Shown here in pieces: positions 6,926 through 28,700 of a stretch of 64,000 nt of DNA (position 1 is the stretch's first letter; every line of letters starts with the position of its first letter). A program made the position numbers and the translations under genes. The notes below the pieces were generated by a model, which searched no databases, was not told where the DNA came from, and saw nothing but the letters and a program-made list of their open reading frames with translations. Source of the stretch: Ancylomarina sp. DW003 (GTDB lineage: Bacteria > Bacteroidota > Bacteroidia > Bacteroidales > Marinifilaceae); NCBI RefSeq assembly GCF_029029505.1, contig NZ_JAKJSD010000021.1, forward strand, positions 1 through 64,000, written 5' to 3'.

Positions 6926-6964
6926 TAAAGGCCGTCGAGAGAAATGCCTTAATAAATAGAACTG

Positions 6965-8164: not shown

Positions 8165-8184
8165 GCTATAATAAATGAAAAATA

Positions 8185-8211
8185 CCGGAACATATTGGTA
8201 CTATGTTCCGG
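8185..8211 (+). promoter_or_regulatory. Intergenic hairpin between fecR A and susC A
   Basis: CCGGAACATA (8185-8194), loop TTGGTAC, TATGTTCCGG (8202-8211): ten perfect pairs and no long T-run. A hairpin occupies the same position in loci B and C, and the locus B loops also contain TTGGT. It could be a partial terminator or processing site that sets the fecR:susC ratio. Confidence 0.6.
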
Positions 8212-8268
8212 CTATTTAGAATTAATCATCCTTAAGGATGCGTGTCTAACCCTAAACATTACAAATTT

Positions 8269-11200
8269 ATGGAAAAATTTGAATTGTTTCGATATTCCAA
8301 GCTTTTTGGAATTCGAACGAAATGGCTAATCGCTATGAAAACATTTATTTTATTATTTTTTGCCTTTAGTATTCAGTTGAATGCTAGTGTTCTATCTCAG
8401 CAAAGAGTAAGCATGAAAATGAGCAATGTAAGTGCAAAAGAATTGATTAAAGAGATTGAATCTCAAACCAATTTGGGTTTCATTTACAACCTGACAGAAA
8501 TTGAAAAGTTAGATGGTTTGTTTATTGATGCTGATCAGCAAACTGTTGAAGAGGTACTTGATGAGGTTTTGGAAGGTACAGATTTAACTTACGAAATTGA
8601 TAAGTCAGTTATTATTATTATACCAAAGCCAGAAGAACCTAAGGTAAAAGTCCAGCAAGAAAAGAGAGAACTAAAGGGCACCGTTACCGACGAAGATGGT
8701 AATAGTTTACCTGGCGTATCAGTTGTTGTGAAAGGCACTATTACAGGTGTGGCAACTGATATTGATGGGAATTATAGCATTTTAATTGAAGGAAATAAAG
8801 CTGTTTTGGTTTTTTCATTTGTGGGAATGATTCCTCAAGAGGTTGCTTATTCTGGTCAGCAAGTAATTGACATTAAATTGCAAGCTGATTCTGAAGGATT
8901 AGATGAAGTAATGGTTGTTGCTTATGGAACAGCTAAAAGAAGTTCATTTACCGGAGCAGCAGCTGTTGTTGACAATGAAAGACTTCAGGAAGCTCAAGTA
9001 TCTAATATATCTAACGCGATGCAGGGAGTAAGTTCCGGGGTGCAAGTTATTTCATCTACAGGACAACCTGGATCTAGTGCAACAATTCGTATTAGAGGAG
9101 TGGGCTCATTATCAGGAAATAGTTCGCCTCTTTACGTTGTGGATGGTGTCCCTTATGATGGCGATTTAAATTCAATTAACCCATCGGATATAAAGTCAAT
9201 GACTGTATTAAAAGATGCTGCTTCAGCATCAATATATGGATCCAGAGCTGCAAATGGTGTGATTGTAATAACAACCAAAAAAGGAGAAAAGAATAAGAAA
9301 GCCGAAATAAGTATAAAGAGTACATTGGGTATATCTTCCAGAGCAGTAGCACCTATCGATCGAGTGAATACGAATGACTGGATGGAACTTTGCTGGGAAG
9401 CAATGCGTAATGGATACATTGATAATGGAATAGAGACAGACTTGGGCCTTGCAGGTAAAAGGGCATCAAAAGAGTTGATATCTAAAATAGGAATAAACCC
9501 TTACGGAACTGCAAATCCAGAACCTGTTGGAGTTGATGGAAAAATAAAAGATGGGCTTAATCCTTTATGGGATAATGATTGGGACGAAGAAATAATAGGA
9601 ACAGGAGTAAGATCAGAAACCAATGTAAATGTTAGTGGAGGATCTGAAAAAACTCAATATTATTTCTCGGGAGGCTATTTAGATGATCAGGGAATGATGC
9701 TTCGTTCCGGCTTTAGGAGAACGTCTGTGAGAATGAGTTTAAACAATCAAACAACAGATTGGTTAAAACTTAATCTGAACATGAATTACGTCAATTCCAA
9801 GACAAAACACAACGATAGTCAAGATAGTAACATTGGAAATGGTGCCACTTATGGTCTTAGTTTGGCTAATTTTTATCCTATTTATCAAAGAGACAGAGAG
9901 ACTGGAGCTTTTGTACTGGATAATGAAGGAAATAAAAAGTATGATTATGGTTTATATCGAACAAATTCATTTAAACGCTCTAACCTAATTGATCATTTAC
10001 CTCGAACGATTAATGAAACAAAAATTGATTTAATAACGCTGAGAGGAAGTGCAGAAATTGATTTTGGAAAAATTAACACTAAATTCTCTGCATTAAAGGG
10101 ACTTAAATTTAAGACGAGTTATAATGCAGACATAAGATCCTCAAATACTCATGATTATTCATTTGGAGTTACAGCTGATGGATCTGACCCTAATGGTTAT
10201 GATGTTATCCCCAATTTGCAATCAGTATCAGCATCAAGAAGTACGGGAACCAGACGTAACTTTACTTTCAATAATATATTGACGTATGATAAAGAATTGG
10301 CAGAAGCACATTCTATTTCAGTTCTCTTAGGTCAGGAACTTTATGAATACAGCTACGTTTATTCGGGAGGAAGCAAGGATAATTTTCCTTTGCCTAATAT
10401 AACTGAGCCTACTTTTGGTTCTAATATATCTGATTTTGATGCCTATTCTGATCTGTATCGTTTAAACTCTTACTTTGGAAGATTTGAGTATGGTTACGAT
10501 GGCAAATACAATGCTTCTTTTTCATATCGTTTTGATGGCTCGTCAAGATTTCATGAGGACAATAGGTGGGGACAATTTTGGTCTGTTGGCGCATCATGGA
10601 ATGTGACCAAAGAAAACTTTATGAAGAATAACAATACTTTTGATATTCTACGATTAAGATCAAGTTATGGTAGTTCGGGTAATCAAAATATAAACACATA
10701 CTATGCTTATCAGAATATGTATGCTTCGACCAATTTAGGAGGATCGCCTGGAATTTATCCAACTAGAATAGGAAATAAAGATCTTCAGTGGGAAGGAAAC
10801 ATTAGTACAAATATTGGTTTAGATTATGGACTTTTCGGTGTTGTTAGAGGTAATGTTGAGTGGTTTCAAAGAGTTTCTGATAATTTGATATATAGCCAAC
10901 CATTGCCTACTACTTCAGGATTTTCAAACATATTAACAAATGTTGGTAAATTAAGAAACAGAGGCTTCGAATTTGAAATTAGAGCTAGCCTTATTGATAA
11001 GGAGGATTTCAAGTGGGAATTAGGGATTAACGGGACTCATTATAAAAATGAACTTGTTGAATACCCTGTAGAAGAAGGGACGATAAGTGGAACGAAACGT
11101 TACAAAGCGGGGAGTGATATTTATGAATTCTTTATAAGAGATTGGGCTGGTAATACCAAAGGTGGAGAAACGACTTATATCAGACAAAACGATGGTTCTA

Positions 11201-11826
11201 TTGCTGAATCTACGAGTAAGGCACAAGGCGGACAAGCATCTTGGTATATTGTGGATGAGCAAGATGGAACAAAATACCAAACTACGGATTACAATTCTGC
11301 TGATAGAATCGAAGCTGGAAGTGCTTTGCCAGATTTGTATGGAGGAATCAGTACAGAAGTGAGAATACACAATTTTACTGTTTCAGCTCTGTTATCCTAT
11401 AGTTTAGGAGGTAAATTTTATACCGGAGGTGATTATACCAGACGATTTGGATACAGCAATAGTGAATCTGTAAGCCCTTGGGCAAAGCAGATGAAAAACA
11501 GGTGGACTCCTGATAATCCTGAATCTGATTTGCCAAGATTGACTTCAGCTTCTCTTTCAAATAGTTGGAGTTCTACATCAACAAGACATTTATATGATGC
11601 TAGCTATGCAAGGCTTAAGAATATTTCAATAACCTATAATTTTCCTGAAACAATAATAAGCAAATTAGGTATCTCGGATGCAAGTGTATTTATTCAAGGG
11701 GAAAATTTGATTACAATTTTTGGTTTGGATGGAGTTGATCCTGAAACAGGAGGTTTATCAGGGGTCTCAGGATATAGATATCCCGTATCAAGAGTTTTTT
11801 CAGGAGGTTTTAGTTTGAAATTTTAA
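8269..11826 (+). CDS. SusC/RagA-type TonB-dependent outer membrane transducer (locus A)
   Basis: A protein of 1,185 residues from the ATG at 8269, which directly follows CATTACAAATTT, the same 12 bases found before all three susC genes here; an in-frame GTG at 8242 is less likely. Order: signal segment (about 25-45), STN signalling domain (about 50-118, VSAKELIKEIESQTNLGFIY), carboxypeptidase-regulatory-like domain (ELKGTVTDEDGNSLPGVSVV), TonB-box region (LDEVMVVAYGT), plug (IRIRGVGSLSGNSSPLYVVDG, GSRAANGVIVITTKKG) and a 22-strand-type barrel ending in FSLKF. It imports a substrate with the SusD partner encoded next and signals through FecR. The substrate cannot be read from the sequence. Confidence 0.94.
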   Translation: MEKFELFRYSKLFGIRTKWLIAMKTFILLFFAFSIQLNASVLSQQRVSMKMSNVSAKELIKEIESQTNLGFIYNLTEIEKLDGLFIDADQQTVEEVLDEVLEGTDLTYEIDKSVIIIIPKPEEPKVKVQQEKRELKGTVTDEDGNSLPGVSVVVKGTITGVATDIDGNYSILIEGNKAVLVFSFVGMIPQEVAYSGQQVIDIKLQADSEGLDEVMVVAYGTAKRSSFTGAAAVVDNERLQEAQVSNISNAMQGVSSGVQVISSTGQPGSSATIRIRGVGSLSGNSSPLYVVDGVPYDGDLNSINPSDIKSMTVLKDAASASIYGSRAANGVIVITTKKGEKNKKAEISIKSTLGISSRAVAPIDRVNTNDWMELCWEAMRNGYIDNGIETDLGLAGKRASKELISKIGINPYGTANPEPVGVDGKIKDGLNPLWDNDWDEEIIGTGVRSETNVNVSGGSEKTQYYFSGGYLDDQGMMLRSGFRRTSVRMSLNNQTTDWLKLNLNMNYVNSKTKHNDSQDSNIGNGATYGLSLANFYPIYQRDRETGAFVLDNEGNKKYDYGLYRTNSFKRSNLIDHLPRTINETKIDLITLRGSAEIDFGKINTKFSALKGLKFKTSYNADIRSSNTHDYSFGVTADGSDPNGYDVIPNLQSVSASRSTGTRRNFTFNNILTYDKELAEAHSISVLLGQELYEYSYVYSGGSKDNFPLPNITEPTFGSNISDFDAYSDLYRLNSYFGRFEYGYDGKYNASFSYRFDGSSRFHEDNRWGQFWSVGASWNVTKENFMKNNNTFDILRLRSSYGSSGNQNINTYYAYQNMYASTNLGGSPGIYPTRIGNKDLQWEGNISTNIGLDYGLFGVVRGNVEWFQRVSDNLIYSQPLPTTSGFSNILTNVGKLRNRGFEFEIRASLIDKEDFKWELGINGTHYKNELVEYPVEEGTISGTKRYKAGSDIYEFFIRDWAGNTKGGETTYIRQNDGSIAESTSKAQGGQASWYIVDEQDGTKYQTTDYNSADRIEAGSALPDLYGGISTEVRIHNFTVSALLSYSLGGKFYTGGDYTRRFGYSNSESVSPWAKQMKNRWTPDNPESDLPRLTSASLSNSWSSTSTRHLYDASYARLKNISITYNFPETIISKLGISDASVFIQGENLITIFGLDGVDPETGGLSGVSGYRYPVSRVFSGGFSLKF

Positions 11827-11902
11827 CAGAGATAAATAAAACACACATGAATTTATTTATTAAGGGAGTTAAAATAATTTAGATAATTGAAAAACTATAG
11901 AA

Positions 11903-13603
11903 ATGAAAAATAAATTTATAAAATATATTGCCATATTCTTGATGACTGTCTCGCTAGGAGCTTGTGACGATTTTTTGGATGTGACACCACCAAGTAAAAT
12001 AACAGACGATGTAATAACAGACGATGCTTTATCTGCATATTATTCAGGAGCATTTAAAAATCTAACAACCTTTTGGTATTCTTATGCATATCCGGGATAC
12101 CGGTCTTTTCTTTTGTATCTCGAATCTGCAGGAGAAGATGTTATATATTCCGGAAAGAATTACGGAGGAATAAGATACTATTATTCATATCAATCTCAAA
12201 ATAATATCTCAGGAGGTTCAGCAAGTAACTACTGGCGAAAACTTTATTCAACAATTGTTTCTTGTAATTTAGGATTAGAAGCGTATGATAAATTGGAAAC
12301 AAAAAGCGACAAGGCAGAAATTATGAAAAACCAATTACTGGGATTAAGAGCCATGTGCTATTTTGACCTGGTAAGAGTGTGGCAACATACTTACGAAGTT
12401 GGTAAAGACATGCCCGTGTGTGTTATAACCAAAGAAGTAGCCGACGCTGAAACTGCTACAGCAGGTAAAGCTTTGTCTACAGTCGAGGAAGTGTATCAGT
12501 TTATGATAGAAGATATTGAAAAGAGTATTTCGGGATTCGAATCTTTATCGTCAGAATACAAAAGAAACAACAAAGGTTTTATTAATAAAAATGTAGCGTA
12601 TGGCATTGCAGCAAGAATTTACCTTACCAGAGGAACAAAGAAAGATGGTAGTGGTATAAAGGCTGATATGGATAAAGCTGCAGAATATGCTTACAAAGCC
12701 AAGGAAGGACTTACATTAATGTCTGAAGATGATTTTTTATCTGGATTTAACGAAGAAGCAAATTCTGAATGGATGTTATGCCTGCCGCAATCTTCGGATG
12801 ATGGCGATATGTCATATATCTTTAACTTTTTAGATACAAGAGGAGATGATGATAGAGCATATTATAAAAATATAATGCCAGATCCGTATTTCAAGAAACT
12901 GTTTGATTATGGAAGTGGCTATGATAATAATGATGTTAGGTTTAAACTATTTGAGGAGCCAAATACTTATGATAAAGTTAGTGGAATGCGAAAAAGGCTT
13001 AAATATCCTAAATTCAAATTCCGAGCATCTGAGAAAACAGGAGATATCTTATTTATGCGACTTTCTGAAATGTTCTTAATTGAGGCTGAAGCTATAGAAA
13101 GAGGAGGAAATTCGTCTGGTGGATTAACACCTTCGTCTATTATTACAGAATTAAGAAGTGCGAGAGGTGCTACAACTGTTGGATATACGGTGGATTTGGA
13201 TTTTATTCTTAAAGAGAGACGAAGAGAACTTTGGGGTGAAGGTGTTGCAGGGATATTTGATATCAACAGAACTCAGAGAATTGTAGATAGAAAAATTCTT
13301 GATTATGATGTACTCCCTGAATATAAAAATATTTTGGCCGTAAGCCCTGATGGTTACCCAATGAATAGTGCACAGATATATCACAATACAGATAATGGAA
13401 AATACTATGATCTTGTAGGTAATGAGATTGCAGCTCCTGGAGATTTTGAACAAGAGCAGTATGACATGACACAAGCTCACTATTCCTTTAAATATCCCAA
13501 TGGAACAAGTTTAAAGGTAGAATCAGCCTATAATTTCTTGCAAATACCAGAAGCAGAAATCTTGAATAACCCGAAAATAGAAGGGCCATTGCCAAGAAAA
13601 TAG
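11903..13603 (+). CDS. SusD/RagB-family substrate-binding lipoprotein (locus A)
   Basis: A 566-residue surface lipoprotein (signal with lipobox LGAC, Cys21, followed by DDFLDVTPPSKITDD, the classic SusD start). TPR-type helices follow, with LLGLRAMCYFDLVRVW at about 145-160 and the C-terminal SusD motif RRRELWGEGVAGIFDINR. It caps the SusC barrel of the gene 76 bases upstream and captures substrate. A strong terminator follows, so locus A ends here without any enzymes, accessory lipoproteins or transporters of its own. Confidence 0.93.
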   Translation: MKNKFIKYIAIFLMTVSLGACDDFLDVTPPSKITDDVITDDALSAYYSGAFKNLTTFWYSYAYPGYRSFLLYLESAGEDVIYSGKNYGGIRYYYSYQSQNNISGGSASNYWRKLYSTIVSCNLGLEAYDKLETKSDKAEIMKNQLLGLRAMCYFDLVRVWQHTYEVGKDMPVCVITKEVADAETATAGKALSTVEEVYQFMIEDIEKSISGFESLSSEYKRNNKGFINKNVAYGIAARIYLTRGTKKDGSGIKADMDKAAEYAYKAKEGLTLMSEDDFLSGFNEEANSEWMLCLPQSSDDGDMSYIFNFLDTRGDDDRAYYKNIMPDPYFKKLFDYGSGYDNNDVRFKLFEEPNTYDKVSGMRKRLKYPKFKFRASEKTGDILFMRLSEMFLIEAEAIERGGNSSGGLTPSSIITELRSARGATTVGYTVDLDFILKERRRELWGEGVAGIFDINRTQRIVDRKILDYDVLPEYKNILAVSPDGYPMNSAQIYHNTDNGKYYDLVGNEIAAPGDFEQEQYDMTQAHYSFKYPNGTSLKVESAYNFLQIPEAEILNNPKIEGPLPRK

Positions 13604-13633
13604 AGCTTCAAAATTATTTAAATTTATAATGTG

Positions 13634-13661
13634 AAGGATGTCCAAAAAGGGCATCCTTTTC
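13634..13661 (+). terminator. Intrinsic terminator of locus A
   Basis: AAGGATG (13634-13640) pairs with CATCCTT (13652-13658), with further CC/GG pairs inside and a T-rich 3' side (TTTTCTTTTC). Confidence 0.8.
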
Positions 13662-14216
13662 TTTTCAGATGGTATTACCAAAAACAAATTGATTGTTGGG
13701 AAGAATTTATTAGGAGTTGTTAGGTGAGGCGTGCCACAAGTCTTTATTTTATCTTTTCAATATGATTTGAATAATGTATAAAAAAATACTAAAAACGATA
13801 AAGGGGAATCTACTTCCTATTGTTGGTATAGTACCATACCTGTTGTATGTCCTTACCTATATCTATTAATAGTCCTTATCGCTACCGATACCATGTCCTT
13901 ATGCATACCGATTGTTATGGTCGTGTTGCAGGTGGCAAAAGTTGAAGAGATTGCTTTCCAGTTTTTCAATAAGTGAGTGTTTGGAACTTCGAAAAATGAA
14001 ACTTTTATGTTTTTTCTACAATATCAATAATTGTGCCCAAAATTACGCAAACGTTTTAATTCACAATATTTTAAGAAACTGAATTTTTCTTTCATATTAT
14101 TTGATTTTTGTCGTGTTTGGGTAGCTGATTATCCAAAAATAATTTTCAACTTTGAATATGAAATTGTATGCTGTAGAGCATGTTTTATTATTTCTAACTA
14201 AACAACCAAAATTGAA
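13662..14216. other. Intergenic region ahead of the giant gene
   Basis: No gene is seen. Between 13835 and 13920 there are loosely repeated short words: GTCCTTA three times, at roughly 22-26 base spacing, and TACCGAT twice. This might be a protein-binding array or a decayed repeat. No TAnnTTTG promoter with good spacing and no TCACCC box was found here. Confidence 0.4.
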
Positions 14217-17200
14217 ATGCACGTAACCGGAAGACCACAATCCGAGCTTAATTACGAGGCGCAGGTTTTTATAAACCTGTATCAGTCCTTGGGTGAAAGG
14301 GCCGAGAACTTTTTACCCCATCGTATTTTTGAGAGCCTTACACAATTTGTAAGGCTTTGTTATGAAGAGTCAGACGATCCTGTCAATCAGGACCTGGAAA
14401 TCAACAAACGTCTTCTTGACCTAAAAGAGGCCATTCCTGGCTATGTTGATGTGTCTTTAATGATTTTCCCTCATGAAAATTCGAAAGCATTCGAATACTC
14501 TGCTCGCCGACAGTCCTTTGTCAAGCGTATTGTCCACCTTATGGACATTGAGGCAGTAGATGAGAAGGAAAAGAAACAATTAAAGAGCATCCTTAATGCG
14601 CCCGATTTTTCTGTAGGAACACCTCCGGTTAGTCAGCATTTAATCAATTCCCTTTATCAGATTACTTTAGGAGATAAGGTTCGTGAGCTGCGTAAGTTTC
14701 GCGACGTTATTGGTGTAACAGGTTATGTCGAGGAAGCGCAATGGAATTACCTTCTTGATGTTTTGGATCAGTTGGTAGTACAATCAACCCATTACACGAC
14801 TGGGAAAGAAAAGGAGCATTTTCTAACGCGTACCGAATCAACGGTCAATTTCAAGGGACTAAATGGCTTTATTCGTACCCTTGTTTCCGGAACGGCTAAT
14901 ATGGCTATTAAATTGATTCAGGAGGAGATCTTCCAACCCGAATTGGTTAGAGTCATTGATTACACAAATCCTGATGAAGTTTACGATCAAATTTGCGAGG
15001 ATACCACTAGTATCTTTATCGTAAAGGTGAAAAATATGCGTCGTAATCCGCTGAATGATTTTAAGTGGTTCCCACTTTTAACGCGAATCATTTTTGTTGA
15101 TTGTTCGCCAGAGTCATTGGCATCGAACACCTGTTTGGTATTCTCTTTTCACAATGAGATCATCAATACCTTAAATAAGGTACACACCAAGAAATTGGGT
15201 GCGCCAGCCAATACGCAAATGAACCTTCGTCTGATTTTAGATAAGGTGAATGTGCGCAATCTGGAGAAATTCCGTTTGGCAGCAGAGGTGAAGATTAAGG
15301 ATTATGAAGAGGAGTTAGCTCGATTGAAATCTGAGCAGTTAGCTGAATCAGGAAATCCAGATCAGGATATCATTCTTTATAAGTTCGATGAGTTTGCTCG
15401 TCAGATTATTAAGGATAAATACATCTTGTCTAAGTTTGTGGCTTTTATCTCGTTTATCGAGAATATAAAGGACGAAGACAAGCATAGAGCGACCAATGAA
15501 ATTTTGCTTCAGGAGTTTGAAACTCGTATGAAGACTTATTTCTATGGAAACAGTTCTGATATCGAATTGGCGACTATCGTTGAAGGAGGTGGCAGAAATC
15601 AATTGAAAACTTATGGGGAGTATTTATTGGCTCGCCCATCTAAAAAAATAAAGAAAACTGTGGCAGAGCGTTGCCGTGTGATTTTGGATATCATTCCAGA
15701 TTCGTACCAGCGTACACTACACAATCATTTCCATAAAAACTTCGGCATCAATCTATTCTTAGAACGATACAAAGCGTATTTAACTAAGGTTGAAAATGAG
15801 GCTGATAATAAAGGACGATTCCGCAATCTGTTAATCGATTTAGGAATCGAAAAAAAGTACGAGCAAAAGACAGAGGAAGAGCAGCAAATCATTCGTGAGT
15901 TTATATCTGGTTTAGGAAATCTTGAAAAGACATCCATCTCGGATGATGTTCAGATGATTCTTCGCGACCTGGTCTTGAATCGTGGTGAGCTTAAGCCATT
16001 TATTTTCTTGAACCAACAAGCTGCTTGGGAGTATAAAGATTTGTTCCCAATCGAGACTTTTGATATGAATGCCTTCGATGTTGAGATTGAACTCGATGAG
16101 GAAGGTCGAATTGACTATGAGCGTTTCTTAACCAAACTGCAACGCATCAAGAGCTCTTTCCAGCTTTTTGATGAGACAGGTAGTTTATGGGATAATTTCT
16201 GTGCTAACTCAACCATTTTAATCAATGACCCATCGAACCCGACAGGTTATACCGATTTTAATAATGTGGCGCTTATTAAGTTCCTGAAATTTATCAGCAA
16301 CACACAGTTGACCTTATTCCTCGACGAGGCCTATAACGACTCTGTAAAGATTGATGACCCTGAAGAGCCTAAGTGGAGAACCATATCGAGCTATATCATC
16401 AATAATATGGCGAGTTATGCACGCATTTCTATGGTAGCTTCCATTTCTACGACTAAGAATTTGGGAGCAACAGGTGATCGCTTAGGAGCTTTGGCAGTAA
16501 CCGAGGCTAAAAAGGACTTGATCGTCTATGCGCGCAAGCAATCTGATGCAAGTAATGGGAACTCCTGTTCGCTATTTATGTTGGTGAATGTTCTTGAGGT
16601 GGCTCAACAAGCCAAGCGAATTAAGGGACAAATGGATGAGGCTTTACCTAAGGATGCATCGCGCCATAAGGTGAAGCAGAAGTTGGAGAACTTCATCAAA
16701 TCGGAGATTAAGAGCAATGTGCCAAGAACTATCGCAGGTAGCTCGGATGCAGCTAAGCGCGAATCTCTTTTCGAAGGATCGCCATTGCATATTTTCCTTT
16801 TGGATGAACTCTTGTCTCTGGATAAATTAGATGTACTGGAACTGCCAGATGATTTTAAATATAAAGGGGAAGCTTTCTTCTCTTATTACAAGCAGCACAT
16901 TGTTACTGAATTGAATCAATTCCGTGTCAATAGAATCTTTAGAACCGAATCGATCAAGCGATTGAAGATGGCAAAGAAGGTTGCGGCTAAGATTATTGAA
17001 GAGGAACAATTGACAGATGTGGGATTCCTTTCATCGGAAGGCGCTTACCTGTTTAATATGACCTTGAAAGGTTACTCATCTTACCAAGATCTAGAGCAAT
17101 TCACACAGGTCTTGGCTGAGAAAAGAGGGATTGCAGCTATTCCATATAAGAATGGAATTGTACGCTTCTCTTTGGGTGACTATGTTGAAGGAACTGAGGC

Positions 17201-20200
17201 TAGCTATCGCGTTTACGAAAAAGAGCTGGAAACTATCTTTAGACTCTTTATCAATACATGGATTCGTTTCAACCAAGGCAAACAAGATGCTGGTGAAAAC
17301 GAAGCGGTTTTATCTGGCTTATTCCCAGCTAAATTTGATCGCCAATTCATAGAGTCTGTTTTAACAGATTTCGATGAGATTCGTGACTTGGATAAGCGAT
17401 TCAATCAGAGTCTGAAGATTAATGATATTAAGACCATGTACCATGCCTTTCCTAAGGTGTGTGGGGTGAGTATTAATTCCATTGGTGATTCTAACAATGC
17501 GGTATTCGAATTTTACGAGAATATAGGTGCTTGCACAACATTGGTTGAGTTTTTGAATAGTCAGACTTTTTCTAAGATTTATGAGAATTTACTGCCTCAG
17601 ATCTATAAGAATATCCCTGCAATCAAGCATTTGGATATCAATGAAGTTTTGGCTCGATATGGCAAGCCAACCATTCAGAAGTATGTGCACAGCAAGCTCG
17701 AATATCAACCGAATGCTCACCTTTTAGATGGACCGAACGAGAAGTTAATCATGACTGAGATCTTGATTGATATGGAGCGCATTCTGTTCTCTGACTCTAA
17801 GGTGAAAATGCTAGTCTTGAATGCGAATGAGAAAGATCCTTCAGGAGACTTGGCAAAGCTTGAAGGTTATAATGTGATTCTTCGAAAGTACATTCAGGAG
17901 ATTCTGCTTCATTTCGATTTACCATTCGAGAAAGAGTTGATTGAACCATCGGTTGAGCAGTTGTTTGAAAAGGCATCTGAACGATTGGAAGAAATCTCTG
18001 GACAGAAACTAAGCCTTGTAAATAACAGCTTGCTTGTTCAGGAATTGTTGCAAGAATTTGCCAGCGAAAAGGAATTTGCAGAGCATTCGCATAAGAATCA
18101 AATGTCAGGTCATTTACTTTCAGCTCTGTCTGATTTAGCTAAAGATAAAACGGTTTCTGAGAAATTGTTACAGATCTATCTGGTGAAGAATGATGTGGCT
18201 TTAGTGAAGAATATCACGGATTCTGTGAATCGTTTGTTCTCTGGTCTTGAGACTCATGATGAGCCTGATACCAGATTGTATTCAGAAAGTTTAATTGCTT
18301 CTGAGGTGAAAACACAATTGGAGCAAAGCTTACGACGTTCATCTTATAAGCTGGTAGAAGAAAATATTCTTGCAGAAGCACGAAACGTTTCTTTATTCTT
18401 GACAAGTGCTTTAAATAGTAGTCGAAATACGCAGTTCTATAACCGTTTCAATCACATCCTGATTAAGTTGTTGAGCATGGATTACCTTCGCCAAAATTCT
18501 ATGCTGAATGAGATGATTCAGCATGGCTTTACGCTTTATCAAGATTTTGATATGGAGAACAAGATTCTTGATACCCATGAGGGTGGTAAGCTATCTTGGA
18601 TTAACGATGTGATGACTAAGTGTGGTGTGATTGCGGCCGAACAGCCTGTGCAAACCCATACACGAATGAATACTGACGCTAAGAAGCGAGAGTACCCATT
18701 CCACAAGATTGACCGATCAGATCATGAAGTCTTGAATGCTGAATTGGTAGGTGATCAATCGCCTCGAAATTTCATCAAGAATATGTCTACGCGACCATCT
18801 TCTGATTTCTTCGCAACAAGAATGTCGAAGTTCATAGAGAATATGGATGCTGACGATTACCGTTGTCGTATTGTTAAAGGAGGTTTGGTAAACGAGTTGT
18901 ATGTTTTTCAAAAGTCCTATATGAAATACTTAGCTGACAATTACCGATTGATTCAACCCAAGGCGGTGAGTTTAAAGGAAGCTAAGAATTTTGTTCCGGA
19001 TATCGTTCTTTTCTTAGGTGCACCAGAGAAGGTTATTTCCTACCCACAAATTGGCTTTTTCGATTTGAATGGACCTAAGGGGAAAATCAAGACCATCGTG
19101 ACTCCATTGAAGAAATCTGTCGATTACTTTGGTGATGTGAAGAAACCTCGACTGACTATGTTGAACGAGAAGGTGAAGGAAATGGGAGGCGCTCCTGTTC
19201 ATGGCTCTTTCTTTGTGATTGAAGGTGACGATGGAAGTATCTTCGGATTGTTGATTAGTGGTGACTCTGGAGTAGGGAAGTCGGAGATGTTAGCAGCCAT
19301 GATGTTAAAGTGGTTGAAGAAAGACTTACCGGGTATCCGTTCTATCAAACTGGTTGCTGGTGATATGCTTCATCTGTTCCCTGATACTGAAGGAAATCTA
19401 TACGGTGTTGGAACCGAGCTGGGTGACTTCTCTCGTGTGACAGATTTTGACCCTGAATACATCAAACAATATCGTCCTCTGTTCGAATCGAGTGCTGATT
19501 CTAATGTGGAAGACTTGAATTCACGTTCAACTATTTCAGGTTTCTGCGATATCAGTATGCCTTATAAGGTTGATATTGTGTTGACGGCTCATAATTATTC
19601 GAAGAACGAAGCGGGAATCACAAAGTATTCCAATGCGGAGAATTTTATGCTTTATCGCGATGCTCATGGGGAAAGAAAAGAGAAGGCAACTTCTCAGGAT
19701 AACCCGCATTTCCAACGAACATTATTGCGCTACACAGCCGATAAGAATATTGTTGATGTTTTGGATCAGCACGGGAATTATTTGGATGATGTTCTGAACT
19801 GGGAAAAGGATGCTAAGAATGGAAAATGGTATTTATGTTCTTCTTACAAGTTGATTGAGAAAATTGACATTGAAGAAGTCGTGAATAAGATTTTCATGGC
19901 AAAGCAATTCAAGCGAGATGGTAGAGAGTTAAGCGTTGAAAACATTCGATTCGATATTATTAAGAACCGATTTATTGTTGAAGCTTCTCAGGACGAAGAG
20001 AGTGTGGAATTTGTTTTAGATCGTGCTTTCTTCAGTAGTATTTTCAACTCCTTAGCCAGTACACCAGGAGGAAATCCATTTATTCATGAAGATGAAGAAT
20101 TGGAAATTCGTAAGCATCTGATTGATGTCTTAAAAGGTGGAAAGACTGGAAAAGGTAAAGGAAAGAGCATTCAATGTGGTATCCTTTCAACTGACCTTGG

Positions 20201-20882
20201 TAAATCAGGAAAGGAGATAAGTGGACCGCAAAAAGCTGCTCAGGATGTTCGAAGATTGATTCAGGAAGTTCGAAATACAAATCCGGAAATTCATAGAACT
20301 AAGGATTGGGTTAAGAAGGATATCGACCAGAAGTACGGTTGGTTATTCTTACACCATAAAAAGAGCTTGGAGATAGAGCGATACAATTTCTTCTTGTACC
20401 AAATGGAGCAAATGAGAAAGGCACGTTTTACTCGACTTGATAATTCTAAGAAAGCTGTTGATCTATCTGTGTTGGATGGTTACGAGCCTCTTCCTAAGAC
20501 TCATGTGTTTAGTCCTTTATTGGTAACACCAAACCTTAATATTGAGCTGAATAGTTTTACTGAAACTTACGAGCAGTTAATGTGGTTGCCAAACAATCAG
20601 GAGTTTGCAGATGAATTCTACGCCGATTGCGATCAGCTTTATGTTGCTGAGGGTTATAGCGAGGAAACCATTATCAATAATATGATTGTTCAGCTTCTGT
20701 TGAAGAATGGTTACATAGCTGTTGAGGATCTTTCGAGAGGTAAGATTACCGAGAAAGCTAATCGTGAGACTATTGCTGCCGCTAAGTTTGCTGCTGTTCG
20801 AAAGTTTAAAGAACAGAAGGAAACAAAATTTGCAAAAGCGAAAGAAGTAAAAACTTCAGCGAAAAAGCAGAATAAGTCTTAA
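14217..20882 (+). CDS. Giant PLP-aminotransferase-fold / HPr-kinase-like P-loop fusion protein
   Basis: One uninterrupted frame of 2,221 residues. Residues 1 to about 590 are mostly helical and not recognised, with a charged coiled-coil-like stretch near 345-385. Residues about 600-1070 have fold-type I aminotransferase marks in order: NDPSNPTG (670-677), LDEAY (703-706 for DEAY), the PLP-lysine motif STTKNLGATGDRLG with Lys747, then a small domain (SSEGAYLFNM near 937, GIVRFSLGDY near 980). Residues about 1080-1640 are helical and unassigned. Around 1660-1930 lies an HPr-kinase-like nucleotide-binding domain with P-loop GDSGVGKSE (1682-1690) and LVAGDMLHLF. A GKGKGK loop (about 1974) and a Lys/Ala-rich tail close it. 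No signal peptide or membrane segments, so cytoplasmic. It is a single-gene unit ending at a perfect terminator. Function unknown. Confidence 0.8.
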   Translation: MHVTGRPQSELNYEAQVFINLYQSLGERAENFLPHRIFESLTQFVRLCYEESDDPVNQDLEINKRLLDLKEAIPGYVDVSLMIFPHENSKAFEYSARRQSFVKRIVHLMDIEAVDEKEKKQLKSILNAPDFSVGTPPVSQHLINSLYQITLGDKVRELRKFRDVIGVTGYVEEAQWNYLLDVLDQLVVQSTHYTTGKEKEHFLTRTESTVNFKGLNGFIRTLVSGTANMAIKLIQEEIFQPELVRVIDYTNPDEVYDQICEDTTSIFIVKVKNMRRNPLNDFKWFPLLTRIIFVDCSPESLASNTCLVFSFHNEIINTLNKVHTKKLGAPANTQMNLRLILDKVNVRNLEKFRLAAEVKIKDYEEELARLKSEQLAESGNPDQDIILYKFDEFARQIIKDKYILSKFVAFISFIENIKDEDKHRATNEILLQEFETRMKTYFYGNSSDIELATIVEGGGRNQLKTYGEYLLARPSKKIKKTVAERCRVILDIIPDSYQRTLHNHFHKNFGINLFLERYKAYLTKVENEADNKGRFRNLLIDLGIEKKYEQKTEEEQQIIREFISGLGNLEKTSISDDVQMILRDLVLNRGELKPFIFLNQQAAWEYKDLFPIETFDMNAFDVEIELDEEGRIDYERFLTKLQRIKSSFQLFDETGSLWDNFCANSTILINDPSNPTGYTDFNNVALIKFLKFISNTQLTLFLDEAYNDSVKIDDPEEPKWRTISSYIINNMASYARISMVASISTTKNLGATGDRLGALAVTEAKKDLIVYARKQSDASNGNSCSLFMLVNVLEVAQQAKRIKGQMDEALPKDASRHKVKQKLENFIKSEIKSNVPRTIAGSSDAAKRESLFEGSPLHIFLLDELLSLDKLDVLELPDDFKYKGEAFFSYYKQHIVTELNQFRVNRIFRTESIKRLKMAKKVAAKIIEEEQLTDVGFLSSEGAYLFNMTLKGYSSYQDLEQFTQVLAEKRGIAAIPYKNGIVRFSLGDYVEGTEASYRVYEKELETIFRLFINTWIRFNQGKQDAGENEAVLSGLFPAKFDRQFIESVLTDFDEIRDLDKRFNQSLKINDIKTMYHAFPKVCGVSINSIGDSNNAVFEFYENIGACTTLVEFLNSQTFSKIYENLLPQIYKNIPAIKHLDINEVLARYGKPTIQKYVHSKLEYQPNAHLLDGPNEKLIMTEILIDMERILFSDSKVKMLVLNANEKDPSGDLAKLEGYNVILRKYIQEILLHFDLPFEKELIEPSVEQLFEKASERLEEISGQKLSLVNNSLLVQELLQEFASEKEFAEHSHKNQMSGHLLSALSDLAKDKTVSEKLLQIYLVKNDVALVKNITDSVNRLFSGLETHDEPDTRLYSESLIASEVKTQLEQSLRRSSYKLVEENILAEARNVSLFLTSALNSSRNTQFYNRFNHILIKLLSMDYLRQNSMLNEMIQHGFTLYQDFDMENKILDTHEGGKLSWINDVMTKCGVIAAEQPVQTHTRMNTDAKKREYPFHKIDRSDHEVLNAELVGDQSPRNFIKNMSTRPSSDFFATRMSKFIENMDADDYRCRIVKGGLVNELYVFQKSYMKYLADNYRLIQPKAVSLKEAKNFVPDIVLFLGAPEKVISYPQIGFFDLNGPKGKIKTIVTPLKKSVDYFGDVKKPRLTMLNEKVKEMGGAPVHGSFFVIEGDDGSIFGLLISGDSGVGKSEMLAAMMLKWLKKDLPGIRSIKLVAGDMLHLFPDTEGNLYGVGTELGDFSRVTDFDPEYIKQYRPLFESSADSNVEDLNSRSTISGFCDISMPYKVDIVLTAHNYSKNEAGITKYSNAENFMLYRDAHGERKEKATSQDNPHFQRTLLRYTADKNIVDVLDQHGNYLDDVLNWEKDAKNGKWYLCSSYKLIEKIDIEEVVNKIFMAKQFKRDGRELSVENIRFDIIKNRFIVEASQDEESVEFVLDRAFFSSIFNSLASTPGGNPFIHEDEELEIRKHLIDVLKGGKTGKGKGKSIQCGILSTDLGKSGKEISGPQKAAQDVRRLIQEVRNTNPEIHRTKDWVKKDIDQKYGWLFLHHKKSLEIERYNFFLYQMEQMRKARFTRLDNSKKAVDLSVLDGYEPLPKTHVFSPLLVTPNLNIELNSFTETYEQLMWLPNNQEFADEFYADCDQLYVAEGYSEETIINNMIVQLLLKNGYIAVEDLSRGKITEKANRETIAAAKFAAVRKFKEQKETKFAKAKEVKTSAKKQNKS

Positions 20883-20904: not shown

Positions 20905-20934
20905 ATAAGGGCTATCTTTCTAGGTAGCCCTTAT
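20905..20934 (+). terminator. Intrinsic terminator after the giant gene
   Basis: ATAAGGGCTA (20905-20914) and TAGCCCTTAT (20925-20934) form ten perfect pairs with a ten-base loop, followed by TTATTA. Confidence 0.85.
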
Positions 20935-21143: not shown

Positions 21144-21677
21144 TTGAAAAAGCTATTGCTAGATAAAACCATTTTAGAAGAACTCTTTAAGGAAAACTAT
21201 AAGGGTTTGTATTATCATGCTTTGAGTTTTATTAAGGATGAAAATGCATCTAAAGATATAGTTAATGATGTATTTGAATATTTTTGGATCAATCGAAAAG
21301 ATATTGATATTTCCTATTCAGCCAAATCATTCCTTTATAGTATGGTTCGAAATAAAGCCATCAATTATTTGAGGCACGAAGAAGTTAAACGCAAGCATAT
21401 AAATTTTCAGCTTTCAAATGCAAATCTGGAATTGGAGGAATATGAAAATAACGAGTCATTAATTGATAAAATAAAGGTATCAATTGGAAACTTACCTCCT
21501 CAGGGAAGAGTTGTATTCGACATGTGCTTTATTCAGAACTACTCCTATAGGGAAATAGCTGAAGAGCTTAATATTTCGATCAACACTGTTAAAACTCATA
21601 TTTCTAAATCAATGAAAAAACTACGTGAGCAATTTTCCGAAGAAATTCTCCTATTCTATCTTTTTTTGAAAAAATAA
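21144..21677 (+). CDS. ECF-family RNA polymerase sigma factor (locus B)
   Basis: A 177-residue ECF sigma factor. Region 2: LFKENYKGLYYHALSFIKDE and SKDIVNDVFEYFWINRKD; region 4: LPPQGRVVFDMCFIQNYSYREIAEEL, then NISINTVKTHISKSMKKLRE (helix-turn-helix). The only start that keeps the family N-terminus is a TTG at 21144; the ATG at 21127 is out of frame and ends after six codons. A weak start may hold synthesis down. The gap to the fecR ATG is 63 bases and holds a TCACCC-type site. It should activate the locus B importer. Confidence 0.9.
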   Translation: MKKLLLDKTILEELFKENYKGLYYHALSFIKDENASKDIVNDVFEYFWINRKDIDISYSAKSFLYSMVRNKAINYLRHEEVKRKHINFQLSNANLELEEYENNESLIDKIKVSIGNLPPQGRVVFDMCFIQNYSYREIAEELNISINTVKTHISKSMKKLREQFSEEILLFYLFLKK

Positions 21678-21688
21678 TTAAAAAAGAG

Positions 21689-21717
21689 TCACCCATTTCA
21701 TTTTTAACTTGTGTTAT
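21689..21717 (+). promoter_or_regulatory. TCACCC-type promoter candidate before fecR B
   Basis: TCACCC (21689-21694), exactly 15 bases, then TGTGTTAT (21710-21717), 24 bases before the fecR ATG. An A-rich tract precedes it, as at the other sites. Confidence 0.55.
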
Positions 21718-21740
21718 ACTCAGACACAAGACAAATAGAA

Positions 21741-22931
21741 ATGAAAAAAAACAAGTACGAACGCATCCAAGAAGTCCTTTCAGTGTTGGGTAAGCCTCAG
21801 CAGTACAGTGCAGATTTCTTTATCAAACATGCTGATGATAAGGAAATGATGGATTTGTATGAAGAAATGAGAAAGTATAAGGAAGCTGGTCTTTCCTTAA
21901 ATGCGTTTTCTGATCCTGATGTGAATTTGCAATGGAATAAACTGAATAGAAAAATACAGACTGGAAGAAATACTTGGACGGTATTTACAGCAATTGCAGC
22001 AAGTGTTGTTATTCTTTTCACAATCGGTATTCTGTTAACGACTGATTGGTCTGCTGACCAGACTTCACAAATGTCACAGAATAAACTAGAGATTATTCCA
22101 GGTGATAGTCGTGCTGTATTAATAACATCTGATGGACAAGAGAGTTTTCTAGACACAAATAATTCTGTCTCTATTCAAGAAAAATTGGGTGTTAATATTG
22201 TATCACTCGATAGAAATACGATTTCCTACCAAGCTGGTGTGGGTGAAGATACTTTACTAGTAAAGGATGCCTACAATACTATTAAGATACCTCGTGCAGG
22301 TGAGTATCGATTAGTTCTTGCTGATGGTACTAAGGTGCGATTGAATTCGGAAACAGAATTGAAATACCCTTTAAAATTTGCGGGAAAGCAAAGAGAGGTT
22401 GAATTGATTGCTGGTGAGGCCTATTTTGATGTTGTGAGTAATCCTGAGAAACCTTTTGTTGTGAGATCAAAAAATGTAGATACCAGAGTTTTAGGAACGC
22501 AATTTAATGTGTCGGCATATCCTGAGGAAGATTTAAATATCACTTTGGTTGAGGGAAAAGTGAGTTTAAATAACAATCTGTCCAAACAAGAACATGTGCT
22601 TGTTCCAGGTGAGAATGCAAAACTTAAGGATAATGATACCCAAATTTCTATTGTAAAGGTTGATGTGAAAAAGTATGTATCCTGGATTGATGGCTATTTT
22701 TATTTTGAGAAAGAGCGCCTTGAGGATATCTTGGTAAAGTTAGAACGTTGGTATGACTTTAAGGTATTTTATCAAAATCCTAAAGTAAAAGATTATGAGT
22801 TTAGAATGCGGGCTGATCGAAATCTTCCTTTTAATGTCGTTTTGGATCGTCTGGAAATGACCGGTAGAATCAAGATTGAGATAAATGGTAGAGCTTTATT
22901 GGTTTCAGATGTACAACGATTAGAAAAATAA
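21741..22931 (+). CDS. FecR-family anti-sigma factor (locus B)
   Basis: A 396-residue regulator from the ATG at 21741; an upstream in-frame start at 21711 would lie inside the candidate promoter. Cytoplasmic part 1-78, membrane helix about 80-101 (VFTAIAASVVILFTIGILL), FecR domain (YRLVLADGTKVRLNSETEL, VELIAGEAYFDVVSNPEKPF) and DUF4974-type end (LEDILVKLERWYDFKVFY). It belongs with the sigma factor just upstream and the STN-bearing SusC downstream as the cell-surface signalling chain of locus B. Confidence 0.93.
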   Translation: MKKNKYERIQEVLSVLGKPQQYSADFFIKHADDKEMMDLYEEMRKYKEAGLSLNAFSDPDVNLQWNKLNRKIQTGRNTWTVFTAIAASVVILFTIGILLTTDWSADQTSQMSQNKLEIIPGDSRAVLITSDGQESFLDTNNSVSIQEKLGVNIVSLDRNTISYQAGVGEDTLLVKDAYNTIKIPRAGEYRLVLADGTKVRLNSETELKYPLKFAGKQREVELIAGEAYFDVVSNPEKPFVVRSKNVDTRVLGTQFNVSAYPEEDLNITLVEGKVSLNNNLSKQEHVLVPGENAKLKDNDTQISIVKVDVKKYVSWIDGYFYFEKERLEDILVKLERWYDFKVFYQNPKVKDYEFRMRADRNLPFNVVLDRLEMTGRIKIEINGRALLVSDVQRLEK

Positions 22932-22952
22932 CCCCATATGTAAATAAAAAAA

Positions 22953-23003
22953 GGGATAGTTGGTGCTATCCCTCAAATAACCGCTCATCATTGGTGTGAT
23001 GAG
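22953..23003 (+). promoter_or_regulatory. Two hairpins between fecR B and susC B
   Basis: GGGATAG-TTGGTG-CTATCCC (22953-22972) and CTCATCA-TTGGTG-TGATGAG (22984-23003): two seven-base-pair stems with the same six-base loop TTGGTG, 11 bases apart. Neither is followed by a T-run long enough for full termination. Confidence 0.6.
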
Positions 23004-23030
23004 TAATTGTTTAATCTTCATTACAAATTT

Positions 23031-26000
23031 ATGAAAAAAAATCTAACCTACCTTCTCCTATTTAGGGATAAGGAGAAAACCCGACAGTGGCTTATGAGAC
23101 TAACTGTGTTGAAAATGATTTTAATGATGAGTTTGCTCACGACTTATGGACGGGTGAATTCTCAGAAAATTATTTCGAGTTTAAGACTGGAGAACGTTTC
23201 ACTCTCCGAAGCGCTTGAGAAAGTTGAAGAATTATCTGATTATGATTTCATCTTTTCTTATGATGATGTCGAAGGTTATCTAGTTTCTGCTAACATGCAA
23301 TCTGTAACATTGGAAGAGTGCTTGGATAATATACTAGAAGAATTGCCTTTTGCTTTTGATACAGAGGATGATTTTGTTGTTGTCAGTTACAACAAATTTG
23401 AGTCAGTTATTAGCGAACAAGAAAAACAGATTACTATAAAGGGAAAAGTTACCGATAAGAATGGAGATGGTCTTCCAGGAGTTTCGGTTGTTATTAAGGA
23501 TTCAAATGTAGGTGTTGCAACCGATATGGATGGTAACTATGTCATATCAACATTGAAAGAGTCATTTGTGCTAACTTTCTCTTTCGTTGGGATGGTATCC
23601 AAAGAGATTACTTATACAGGACAACAAGCCATTAATGTCGTATTATTAGATAATGAGGCTAGTCTTAATGAAGTTGTTGTAACGGGTATGTTTAAGAGAA
23701 AGGCTGAGAGTTTTACTGGTTCAGCTGTTACAATGAAAGCCGATGATTTAAAGAGAGCAGGTAACGGAAATATTTTTGAGAGTTTAAAGAACCTGGACCC
23801 ATCTTTAAATTTAATACCTAACTTAGATATGGGTAGTGATCCTAATGCCCTTCCAGAAATGGAAATTCGCGGTACTACAACATTTCCTTCTGGAGGATTA
23901 GATACTGACCTTAAAAGTAATTTTATGGGAAATCCTAATGCCCCATTATTTATTTTGGATGGTTTTAGGGTTGATGTGTCTACAGTATTTGATTTAGATA
24001 TTGATAGAATTCAGTCCGTTACTATTCTGAAGGATGCTGCCGCAAAAGCTATTTATGGTTCCAGAGCTGCAAATGGTGTTATTGTACTGGAAACTAAGCG
24101 ACCTTTAATTGGTAATACAAGAGTGTATCTTACATCTTCTCTTAATATTACTTCTCCTGATTTAACTTCTTATGATTTAGCGAATGCAGCTCAAAAGATG
24201 GCTATTGAAGAAAATGCAAAAATATGGGAAGGTGATAGAATTGGAGATTTTAAATATAAAGAACCTGAATATCTTTTACGTAAGAGATTGTTAAGTGAAG
24301 GGGTAGATACTGACTGGATTAATAAGCCGCTAAGAACAGGTATTGGGCATAAGCAAAGCATTGGAGTTGAAATTGGCGAACAAAAAATGACAATGCTTCT
24401 TAATTTTGCTTACAACAAGGAAGCCGGTGTTATGCGTAATTCGGAAAGGGAAAACTTAAGTGGATCTATAAATTTACGATATAGGCATAAGGACCTTATT
24501 TTTAGAAATATATTGTCTATAACTGATAATAAAGGAACTGATAGTAATTATGGAGATTTTTCAACATATGCTTTAGCTAATCCGTATTTTCCAACTCATA
24601 CTAAAGATGGTGAGATTTTTGAAGCAAAAGGTTTCTCTAATCCTCTTGGAAATATTGATTTAAATACTGTTTCGGAAAATAAATACCTGAATATTACTAA
24701 TAATTTTTACGCAGAGTGGAAAATAACACCCGAACTTAAATTAACTAGTAACCTAGGCTTGTCAATCAAAAATACCGAATCTCATTATTTTTTCCCTGCA
24801 GCTCATACTATGTTTGACGAATATGAGGAAGAGGATGAGATAAGGAAAGGTAGTTATAATATGAATACTGGAAAGCAAAAAATATTTAGTTCTTCAGTAG
24901 GTTTCGAATTTAATAAGACAATAGATAAGCACTATATATCTGCTAATTTTAGTCTTAGGTCTAGTGATGAAACGTATAATGAGGTAGTAAATTACACTGA
25001 AGGTTTTCCTAATGATAAAATGAGTGATATTACATTTGCCTTACAATATGCTGATAATAAGACGCCATTGGGTATGGAAGGAAAAGTTCGTGATATAGGT
25101 ATTGTTGGTCTTATGGCTTATACTTATGATGATCGATTTTTAACCGATGTAACAGTAAGACGTAATGGTAGTTCTCAATTTGGTAAGAAAAATCGTTGGG
25201 GAACCTTTTATAGTCTTGGTTTAGGATGGAACCTGCATAATGAAAAGTTTATGCAAGAAATTAATTTTATTAAAAAAGCAAAATTAAGAGGATCATACGG
25301 AAGTACAGGATCTCAGGTGTTTTCTCCCTATGAATCTATTCCTACCTACAGTTATAATACCAGAAATCATTATACCGGAAATTACGGAGCATATATTATG
25401 TCTCTTGCAAATGAAGAAATACAGTGGCAAGAGAAAATAGAATATAATTTAGGTTTTGACTTAGTTATTGGTAGATTAAGTTTAATATCAAATTATTATA
25501 CTTCCCTAACAGATAATCTTATTACTGACTTAAGTATCGCTCCTTCTCTTGGTTTTACCATGATGAAAGAAAATGTTGGAAAAATAAGAAATGAAGGATG
25601 GGAAATTACAGCTAATTATCAGTTGCTAAAAAAGAAAAATGCTTATCTAAATATTAATGCTTCAGTATCTCATAACGAAAATACAATTGAAGAACTATCC
25701 GATGCAATGAAGAAATTCAACGATATGCAGGATGAAGCTGCTTCTAAAAGAGATAATAATAAAGTTTTTAAGAGATATATCGAAGGAGCTAGTTTAAATA
25801 CTATTTATGCCGTTAAAAGTTTCGGAATTGACCCAGAGAGTGGTAATGAAGTTTTTCAAAAAGCTGATGGTACACGAACAATAGTATGGGATGCTGATGA
25901 TCAAATTGCTGCTGGTAATACAATGCCAAAATTTCTTGGTAATGTTGGATTAAACGGCGAATTCAATGGAATTGGTGCTAGTGTACTTTGTACTTTCAGA

Positions 26001-26405: not shown

Positions 26406-26408
26406 AAA

Positions 26409-27938: not shown

Positions 27939-27956
27939 AATTTAAAATTTAAATAG

Positions 27957-28700
27957 ATGAAAATATTATATACGTTTTTCTTTTTATTGCTAATATATGG
28001 ATGTGATAAACAAGAAATAGAGAACTGGGAGTCAAACGAAAGAATGATTCAGTTTAAAGCTTCAGAAACATCATACAGCTTTAAATTATCTGATAAAGAA
28101 AATGATGTTATTGATATTCCTGTAAGCATTAATGGATTAAAAGTAGATCAAGAATCAACTTTTAGATGCGAAGTATTGTTAGACAGTACAACTATGCCGG
28201 CGGATTATTATGAGATTATTGATACCAAAATCGAAAAGGATAAAACCGAAGGCGTTGTTAAATTATCAATAAAAAAGTTTGGTGATATAGAGAGTGATGA
28301 TACAAGAATTTGGTTGCGATTACATTCTAATGAAAATTTTCTTTCTGGTCCATATAGATACCAAGATTGTGAAGTTTCTATAACAAACAAACTTTTACCA
28401 CCAATAACTTGGGGGCCTGGTAACTGGATGGCAAAATATGAATTAGGTAATTATAGTAGTAATTATTATGCAATAATTATTGAAGCTACGGGTTATACAA
28501 ATTTCATATGGCATAAAAGTTGGGAAAGATATAATCTTGGAAAACAAATGACTTCTGAAGAAAAAGCAGCGTTTAGAAATAATGTTCGTGCTAAAATTCA
28601 CGAAATGAAAAGAGCTTTACCCGAAGGAGAAAAGTTAGTACATGAAGATGGAACTGCTAAAGGTAAAGAAATTATTTATGGATTTTTTTATAAACAATAG
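27957..28700 (+). CDS. DUF4843-type lipoprotein
   Basis: A 247-residue lipoprotein with a short signal and lipobox IYGC (Cys16). The beta-rich body with paired sheet segments (VIDIPVSINGL, FRCEVLLDSTTMP, YRYQDCEVSITN) and its place after SusD fit DUF4843, a Bacteroidota family of about this length found beside SusC/D pairs; that assignment is from recollection of the family. Probably surface-exposed and accessory to substrate capture by locus B. No enzymatic motif is visible. Confidence 0.65.
   Translation: MKILYTFFFLLLIYGCDKQEIENWESNERMIQFKASETSYSFKLSDKENDVIDIPVSINGLKVDQESTFRCEVLLDSTTMPADYYEIIDTKIEKDKTEGVVKLSIKKFGDIESDDTRIWLRLHSNENFLSGPYRYQDCEVSITNKLLPPITWGPGNWMAKYELGNYSSNYYAIIIEATGYTNFIWHKSWERYNLGKQMTSEEKAAFRNNVRAKIHEMKRALPEGEKLVHEDGTAKGKEIIYGFFYKQ

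What the first reader, a model, noticed from the sequence alone, without database searches (positions are those of the whole stretch)
14217..20882. A 2,221-residue protein joining an aminotransferase fold to an HPr-kinase-like ATPase
The sequence shows an ordered set of fold-type I PLP motifs (NDPSNPTG 670-677, DEAY 703-706, Lys747 in STTKNLGATGDRLG) and, about 930 residues later, an HPr kinase-type P-loop (GDSGVGKSE 1682-1690). Known members of either family are 300-450 residues. About 1,100 residues, including the first 590, match nothing I recognise. An enzyme that binds an amino acid through PLP and carries a kinase-like domain in one chain could couple amino-acid status to phosphorylation. 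It is transcribed alone. I know of no characterised protein of this build.
Basis: partly seen in the sequence, partly recalled or inferred. Interest (0 to 1): 0.8.

Follow-up and report, generated by a model that had tools for sequence, protein, structure and literature searches.

The report
Giant aminotransferase and PEPCK-like fusion protein
One very large bacterial protein carries both a vitamin-B6-dependent aminotransferase and an enzyme domain related to phosphoenolpyruvate carboxykinase, both with intact-looking active sites, so it may link two steps of amino-acid and sugar metabolism, but this has not been tested.

Summary
The ORF is real: 2,221 aa at 14217-20882, one copy in its genome, probably transcribed alone. 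It belongs to a conserved family of about 2,200-residue proteins, almost all in Bacteroidota (49 loci in one scan, 49-97% identity). It was wrong on two points. The P-loop part is better read as a phosphoenolpyruvate carboxykinase (PEPCK)-like domain (about 1439-2023) than as an HPr kinase: profile comparison, Foldseek on a predicted structure, and invariant K1643, H1662, K1688, D1716 and R1770 agree. And the N-terminal 590 residues are not all unrelated: in the predicted structure the aminotransferase fold starts at residue 72-128 and ends near 1020, so it is spread over about 940 residues by long insertions. Stand-alone relatives of the PEPCK-like part exist; some sit beside PEP carboxylase or aldolase genes. 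Best mechanism: an amino acid (aspartate is the natural candidate) is transaminated and the oxo-acid handed to the PEPCK-like site. The architecture is well supported; substrates and coupling are inference. No such fusion appeared in my literature searches. New variant of known kinds.

The parts
14217..20882 (+). the whole gene, 2,221 codons plus stop
14466..17279 (+). residues about 84-1021: class I/II (fold-type I) PLP aminotransferase fold with long insertions
14616..14627 (+). GTPP, residues 134-137, candidate for the N-terminal GxP element of aminotransferases (inference)
   Evidence: G134, P136, P137 identical in 51 of 51
14883..14903 (+). VSGTANM, residues 223-229, candidate PLP-phosphate loop of a split aminotransferase fold (inference)
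   Evidence: V223, S224, G225 identical in 51 of 51; T226 varies (T 15, N 31, others 5); strand 219-224 then helix 227-238 in the model
16224..16247 (+). NDPSNPTG, residues 670-677
   Evidence: N674 and P675 identical in 51 of 51
16323..16334 (+). DEAY, residues 703-706
   Evidence: D703, E704, Y706 identical in 51 of 51
16446..16487 (+). STTKNLGATGDRLG, residues 744-757; Lys747 (Schiff-base lysine) and Arg755
   Evidence: S744, K747, R755 identical in 51 of 51
17160..17177 (+). VRFSLG, residues 982-987; Arg983, candidate alpha-carboxylate arginine
   Evidence: R983 identical in 51 of 51; equivalence to Arg386 is recalled family knowledge
17967..18416 (+). residues 1251-1400: variable linker between the two modules
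   Evidence: no invariant position in 51 rows
18531..20285 (+). residues about 1439-2023: PEPCK-like two-lobed phosphotransferase domain
   Evidence: hhalign, Foldseek, VIA, alignment
19122..19145 (+). DYFGDVKK, residues 1636-1643, aligned with the PEPCK Y-G..MKK metal-lysine segment
   Evidence: Y1637, G1639, K1642, K1643 identical in 51 of 51; alignment
19194..19208 (+). PVHGS, residues 1660-1664; His1662, aligned with the PEPCK metal histidine
   Evidence: H1662 identical in 51 of 51; alignment
19260..19286 (+). GDSGVGKSE, residues 1682-1690, P-loop
   Evidence: G1682, G1687, K1688, S1689, E1690 identical in 51 of 51
19356..19367 (+). AGDM, residues 1714-1717; Asp1716, candidate metal ligand (PEPCK has GDD here)
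   Evidence: D1716 identical in 51 of 51
19512..19526 (+). DLNSR, residues 1766-1770; Arg1770, aligned with the PEPCK N-T/S-R arginine
   Evidence: R1770 identical in 51 of 51; alignment
20286..20879 (+). residues 2024-2221: C-terminal extension, no match found
20905..20934 (+). terminator-like hairpin, 13 pairs

Best explanation
It is a two-enzyme protein. Supported by sequence and predicted structure: the N-terminal module (about 1-1240) holds a fold-type I, class I/II PLP enzyme whose catalytic residues are kept, and the C-terminal module (about 1439-2023) is a PEPCK-like phosphotransferase with P-loop and metal-site residues kept; a variable linker lies between them. Inferred: the PLP module transaminates an amino acid to an oxo-acid, and the PEPCK-like module uses a nucleoside triphosphate to phosphorylate that oxo-acid or its enol, in one complex. 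The most natural pair is aspartate to oxaloacetate, then oxaloacetate to phosphoenolpyruvate plus CO2, which would feed sugar synthesis from amino acids. My odds by step: two-enzyme architecture 0.9; PEPCK clan rather than HPr kinase 0.8; the two steps share an intermediate 0.4; aspartate to PEP in particular 0.3. The confidence field is for the shared-intermediate reading.
Confidence: 0.4

Rival explanations
1. The PEPCK-like module is a kinase for another small molecule (for example a hydroxy-amino acid or an acid sugar), and the PLP module acts on the phosphorylated product by transamination, elimination or decarboxylation.
For: Substrate-loop positions differ from PEPCK; best sequence matches of the PLP part among solved structures are ACC synthases, which are not transaminases; weak NCBIfam matches to GntC cyclodehydratase and CobD decarboxylase.
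Against: The metal-site lysine and histidine and the N-S-R arginine of PEPCK are kept; the stand-alone relatives lie beside PEP carboxylase or aldolase in 4 of 7 loci, from two related genomes.
Confidence: 0.3
2. An amino-acid-responsive regulator: the PLP part senses an amino acid and the P-loop part phosphorylates a protein.
Against: The match to PEPCK covers 310-341 residues and both lobes; all 50 listed Foldseek rows are PEPCK; Hpr_kinase_C is below cut-off and covers 34 residues; no HPr-like partner stood out near the gene.
Confidence: 0.1
3. One or both enzyme-like parts are catalytically dead and serve as a scaffold or a structural protein.
For: Long insertions in both folds; one acid of the PEPCK pair is replaced; the first half of the aminotransferase fold is not recognisable by sequence.
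Against: Every tested catalytic position of the recognisable parts is identical in 51 of 51 sequences at 51-97% identity to the window protein, unlike a decayed site.
Confidence: 0.15

Closest known systems
Class I/II aminotransferases (PF00155; e.g. KAT-II homologue 1x0m, LysN 2zyj, ACC synthase 1iax)
   Same: Fold over 340-390 residues, NPTG, DxxY, SxxK with Arg eight residues on, and a C-terminal arginine
   Different: The fold is spread over about 940 residues instead of about 400, and is fused to a second enzyme domain
Phosphoenolpyruvate carboxykinase, ATP and GTP types (PF01293, PF00821; 3dt4, 1xkv)
   Same: Two-lobed match over 310-341 residues; metal lysine and histidine, P-loop and N-x-R arginine aligned
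   Different: Below the curated family cut-offs, altered GDD and substrate loops, about 105 residues inserted, and fused to a PLP enzyme
Stand-alone 576-599 residue PEPCK-like proteins of Bacteroidales and the Limosilactobacillus fermentum protein AYP99509.1 annotated as phosphoenolpyruvate carboxykinase
   Same: Closest relatives of the C-terminal module (hhalign Prob 99.6-99.9%; 97.8%)
   Different: No PLP module; function untested as far as I found
HPr kinase/phosphorylase (PF07475; 3tqf, 1jb1)
   Different: Family cut-off not reached; the match lacks the N-lobe region that the PEPCKs cover
DUF4914 (PF16260)
   Same: P-loop with GKSEM and a following DDM/E..WF.R segment
   Different: Weak match only (Prob 27.6%)
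Mycoplasma penetrans methionyl-tRNA synthetase with an appended aminotransferase domain (PMC7694997, title and start of abstract seen in the listing)
   Same: An aminotransferase fused to a second enzyme and said to be able to supply its substrate
   Different: Different partner enzyme; unrelated protein

Membership tests
Class I/II aminotransferase (PF00155) | curated family score | tested here: met
   41.9 bits against 19.7; 35 of 35 members match at E up to 1
Class I/II aminotransferase (PF00155) | Schiff-base Lys, PLP-ring Asp and Tyr, NPxG Asn, carboxylate Arg | tested here: met
   K747, D703, Y706, N674, R983 identical in 51 of 51; their roles are recalled family knowledge
Class I/II aminotransferase (PF00155) | fold | tested here: met
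Class I/II aminotransferase (PF00155) | phosphate-binding loop before the first helix of the large domain | tested here: inconclusive
   candidate VSGT/N 223-226; sequence profiles do not confirm it
Class I/II aminotransferase (PF00155) | PLP binding and transaminase activity | not testable with these tools
   needs the purified protein
PEPCK (PF01293/PF00821) | curated family score | tested here: not met
   no PEPCK family listed for the window protein up to E 10; relatives L010 and L012 reach at best 16.6 bits against 23.8
PEPCK (PF01293/PF00821) | P-loop, metal Lys and His, N-x-R arginine | tested here: met
   K1688/S1689, K1643, H1662, R1770 by alignment, identical in 51 of 51
PEPCK (PF01293/PF00821) | GDD metal-binding acids | tested here: inconclusive
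   AGDM: one Asp (D1716) kept, its neighbour is Gly or Met depending on register
PEPCK (PF01293/PF00821) | substrate-binding Arg of the N-lobe (TGRSPKD loop) | tested here: inconclusive
   the loop falls on TDAKKRE, with Ala under the Arg; R1483 and R1491 nearby are invariant, R1526 is not
PEPCK (PF01293/PF00821) | two-lobed fold | tested here: inconclusive
PEPCK (PF01293/PF00821) | OAA plus NTP to PEP activity | not testable with these tools
   needs the purified protein
HPr kinase/phosphorylase (PF07475) | curated family score | tested here: not met
   14.9 bits against 33.3; 9 of 35 members match at E up to 1
HPr kinase/phosphorylase (PF07475) | P-loop core fold | tested here: inconclusive

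The most novel reading that the evidence does not exclude
A single polypeptide that converts aspartate (or a related amino acid) to phosphoenolpyruvate (or a related phospho-enol acid) by handing the oxo-acid from a PLP aminotransferase site to a PEPCK-like site: a one-protein shortcut from amino acids to the entry of gluconeogenesis.
Probability: 0.3. Interest if true: 0.8.

Novelty: new variant of a known kind. Interest (0 to 1): 0.55.

Why it matters
Both parent families are textbook enzymes of central metabolism, yet my searches found no report of them in one chain. A roughly 250-kDa protein kept whole, with both active sites fixed, in several Bacteroidota families suggests a selected physical link between transamination and a PEPCK-type reaction. 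It offers a testable case of substrate passing between two well-understood active sites, and it points to a family of stand-alone PEPCK-like proteins, one annotated as PEPCK in Limosilactobacillus, whose substrate deserves a test.

Tried and rejected
Gene neighbours as a clue: in 44 loci holding the full gene (some cut by contig ends) the commonest neighbour families were an upstream pair (9 loci; HflK/HflC-like by eye, recalled), a trehalose-phosphate-synthase-like gene (8), a glycoside-hydrolase-like gene (8) and sigma-factor-like ORFs at scattered places (8); the first three are mostly in Marinilabiliaceae. No partner is conserved across the family.

Recent transfer as the cause of high GC: the window gene has GC3 0.413, highest of the 31 plus-strand ORFs compared, next 0.346. 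But GC3 follows each host and exceeds the mean of neighbouring ORFs in 29 of 32 loci (crude ORF calls), so codon selection is likelier. A quick tree of 43 rows keeps Rikenellaceae and Marinilabiliaceae together.

Phage or plasmid cargo: no match in phages; one plasmid record, matching the PEPCK-like part only. PADLOC mads_8 matched 1678-1884 weakly, E 8.3e-5; one paper search on it gave nothing relevant.

A second, lysine-less aminotransferase in 84-345 (built-in pseudo-dimer): considered from recurring elements there; profiles gave Prob 0.3% to aminotransferases and only a trivial end overlap with the active half. A split single fold fits the VIA ranges better: starts 72-128 and ends 1014-1026 in all 50 listed rows. 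But joining 80-275 to 655-1025 did not raise the score (88.4, against 88.7 for 440-1025 and 88.6-88.8 for two control joins). It lengthened the aligned stretch from 90 to 147 columns in one mode, and not in the other (88 columns in each of the four). The comparison set was small: 5 own-genome aminotransferases and 4, of 16 loci fetched. The split fold remains inference; I saw no residue-level structural alignment.

Profile searches of the C-module and of its stand-alone relatives against solved-structure sequences gave nothing meaningful and no PEPCK. Residues 1040-1240, 1250-1440 and 2024-2221 matched nothing convincing; this does not show new folds. Mutual exclusion of fused and stand-alone genes (16 and 5 of 247, none with both) is what chance would give. 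A Lactobacillus PEPCK paper search found nothing useful.

Literature: nine full-text searches, of which bear on the fusion. I saw listings and starts of abstracts only; no paper was opened.
Full report
THE OBSERVATION. The gene lies between two SusC/SusD-type operons: 613 bp upstream ends a SusD gene, and 261 bp downstream starts a sigma-70-family gene on the same strand. Terminator-like hairpins lie at 13633-13659 and, 22 bases past the stop, at 20905-20934 (8 sites found, 4.8 expected). Its genome, 4.84 Mb in 70 contigs, has one copy.

THE FAMILY. Of 58 genomes searched as relatives, own genome included, 11 matched: 9 with the full-length protein, one with two shorter proteins matching the C-terminal module only, one with a C-terminal piece. 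One scan of species genomes gave 49 loci at 49-97% identity (its peptide patterns reach close relatives only). Record titles are Bacteroidota groups except one Calditrichaceae and one Chlorobiota MAG, both nested among Bacteroidota in a quick tree. A phylum-wide sample had 3 of 392, own genome included. An order-wide sample had 16 of 247 with the N-terminal profile and 21 of 247 with the C-terminal profile. In all 16 the N-terminal match lies in an open frame of 2,150-2,320 codons, so the N-terminal part was not seen alone in that sample. The other 5 genomes hold 7 stand-alone proteins of 576-599 residues. Complete frames in the fetched full-length loci run from 2,203 to 2,320 residues, apart from L057 (two frames) and L058 (1,913 aa), both drafts. 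The distribution is patchy: 3 of 5 genomes of the window's genus have the gene.

CONSERVATION. In 51 aligned full-length rows (35 after removing near-duplicates), N674, P675, D703, Y706, S744, K747, R755 and R983, and K1642, K1643, H1662, G1682, G1687, K1688, S1689, E1690, D1716 and R1770 are identical in 51 of 51. Residues 1251-1400 have no invariant position, which I read as a linker between two modules.

CONTEXT. No neighbour is conserved around the fused gene. Of the 7 stand-alone relatives, 2 lie next to PEP carboxylase, 2 are divergent from class I fructose-bisphosphate aldolase, and 1 is near succinate-CoA ligase alpha. The first four are two copies in each of two genomes of one family, so they are not independent. 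The L. fermentum gene has no such neighbours. The host has an ordinary PEPCK (15 of 16 relatives do, own genome included) and 25 PF00155 matches. GC3 raised over neighbours in 29 of 32 loci would fit strong expression.

HOW IT MAY WORK. Supported: two intact-looking active sites in one chain. Inferred: the PLP site makes an oxo-acid and the PEPCK-like site phosphorylates it. Aspartate to oxaloacetate to PEP is the first pair to test, because these are the two families' textbook reactions (recalled). An aminotransferase domain that feeds its fused partner has a precedent in a methionyl-tRNA synthetase (PMC7694997; title and start of abstract seen). That the second site is a kinase for another metabolite is about as likely as the specific aspartate reading.

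VERDICT. Observation confirmed, interpretation half right. It is a conserved combination of two well-known enzyme kinds that I did not find described in the library searched (six searches bearing on the fusion; subscription papers are mostly not held).

Noticed in passing
L127, L128, L132, L133 (from genomes G545 and G052): Stand-alone PEPCK-like genes of about 577-598 aa come in two copies per genome, one beside PEP carboxylase and one divergent from class I fructose-bisphosphate aldolase.
   Followed up: partly
L126:3086-4795 (CP033373.1): A Limosilactobacillus fermentum plasmid protein annotated phosphoenolpyruvate carboxykinase belongs to this PEPCK-like family but scores far below the curated PEPCK models (17.7 bits against 806 at best); the annotation may be over-confident.
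   Followed up: partly
window 16770-16859 (residues 852-881): A strongly conserved stretch FEGSPLHIFLLDELLSLDKLDVLELPDDFK inside an apparent insertion of the aminotransferase (F852 to P856 invariant in the 35 rows); role unknown.
   Followed up: no
window 13847-13913: Two imperfect copies (76%) of a 21-base sequence 46 bases apart in the upstream intergenic region, with similar C/T-rich text around them.
   Followed up: no
window 19248-19868 (residues 1678-1884): Weak match (E 8.3e-5) to the PADLOC model mads_8, which suggests that this defence protein may also carry a P-loop of this kind.
   Followed up: no
window 6137-13603 and 21144-30320: The gene sits between two operons with sigma-70-family and FecR or SusD-type genes (Pfam for 6137, 11903, 21144 and 21711; the long ORFs at 8242 and 23007 look SusC-like by eye).
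   Followed up: no
L057 (Geofilum rubicundum JCM 15548): The gene reads as two ORFs of 579 and 1,395 aa in this draft: assembly error or decay.
   Followed up: no
L102-L111 (DUF4914 proteins): DUF4914 (PF16260) shows a weak profile match to the PEPCK-like stand-alone family (Prob 66.6%) and to PEPCK (Prob 61.6%), so this family of unknown function may belong to the same clan.
   Followed up: partly
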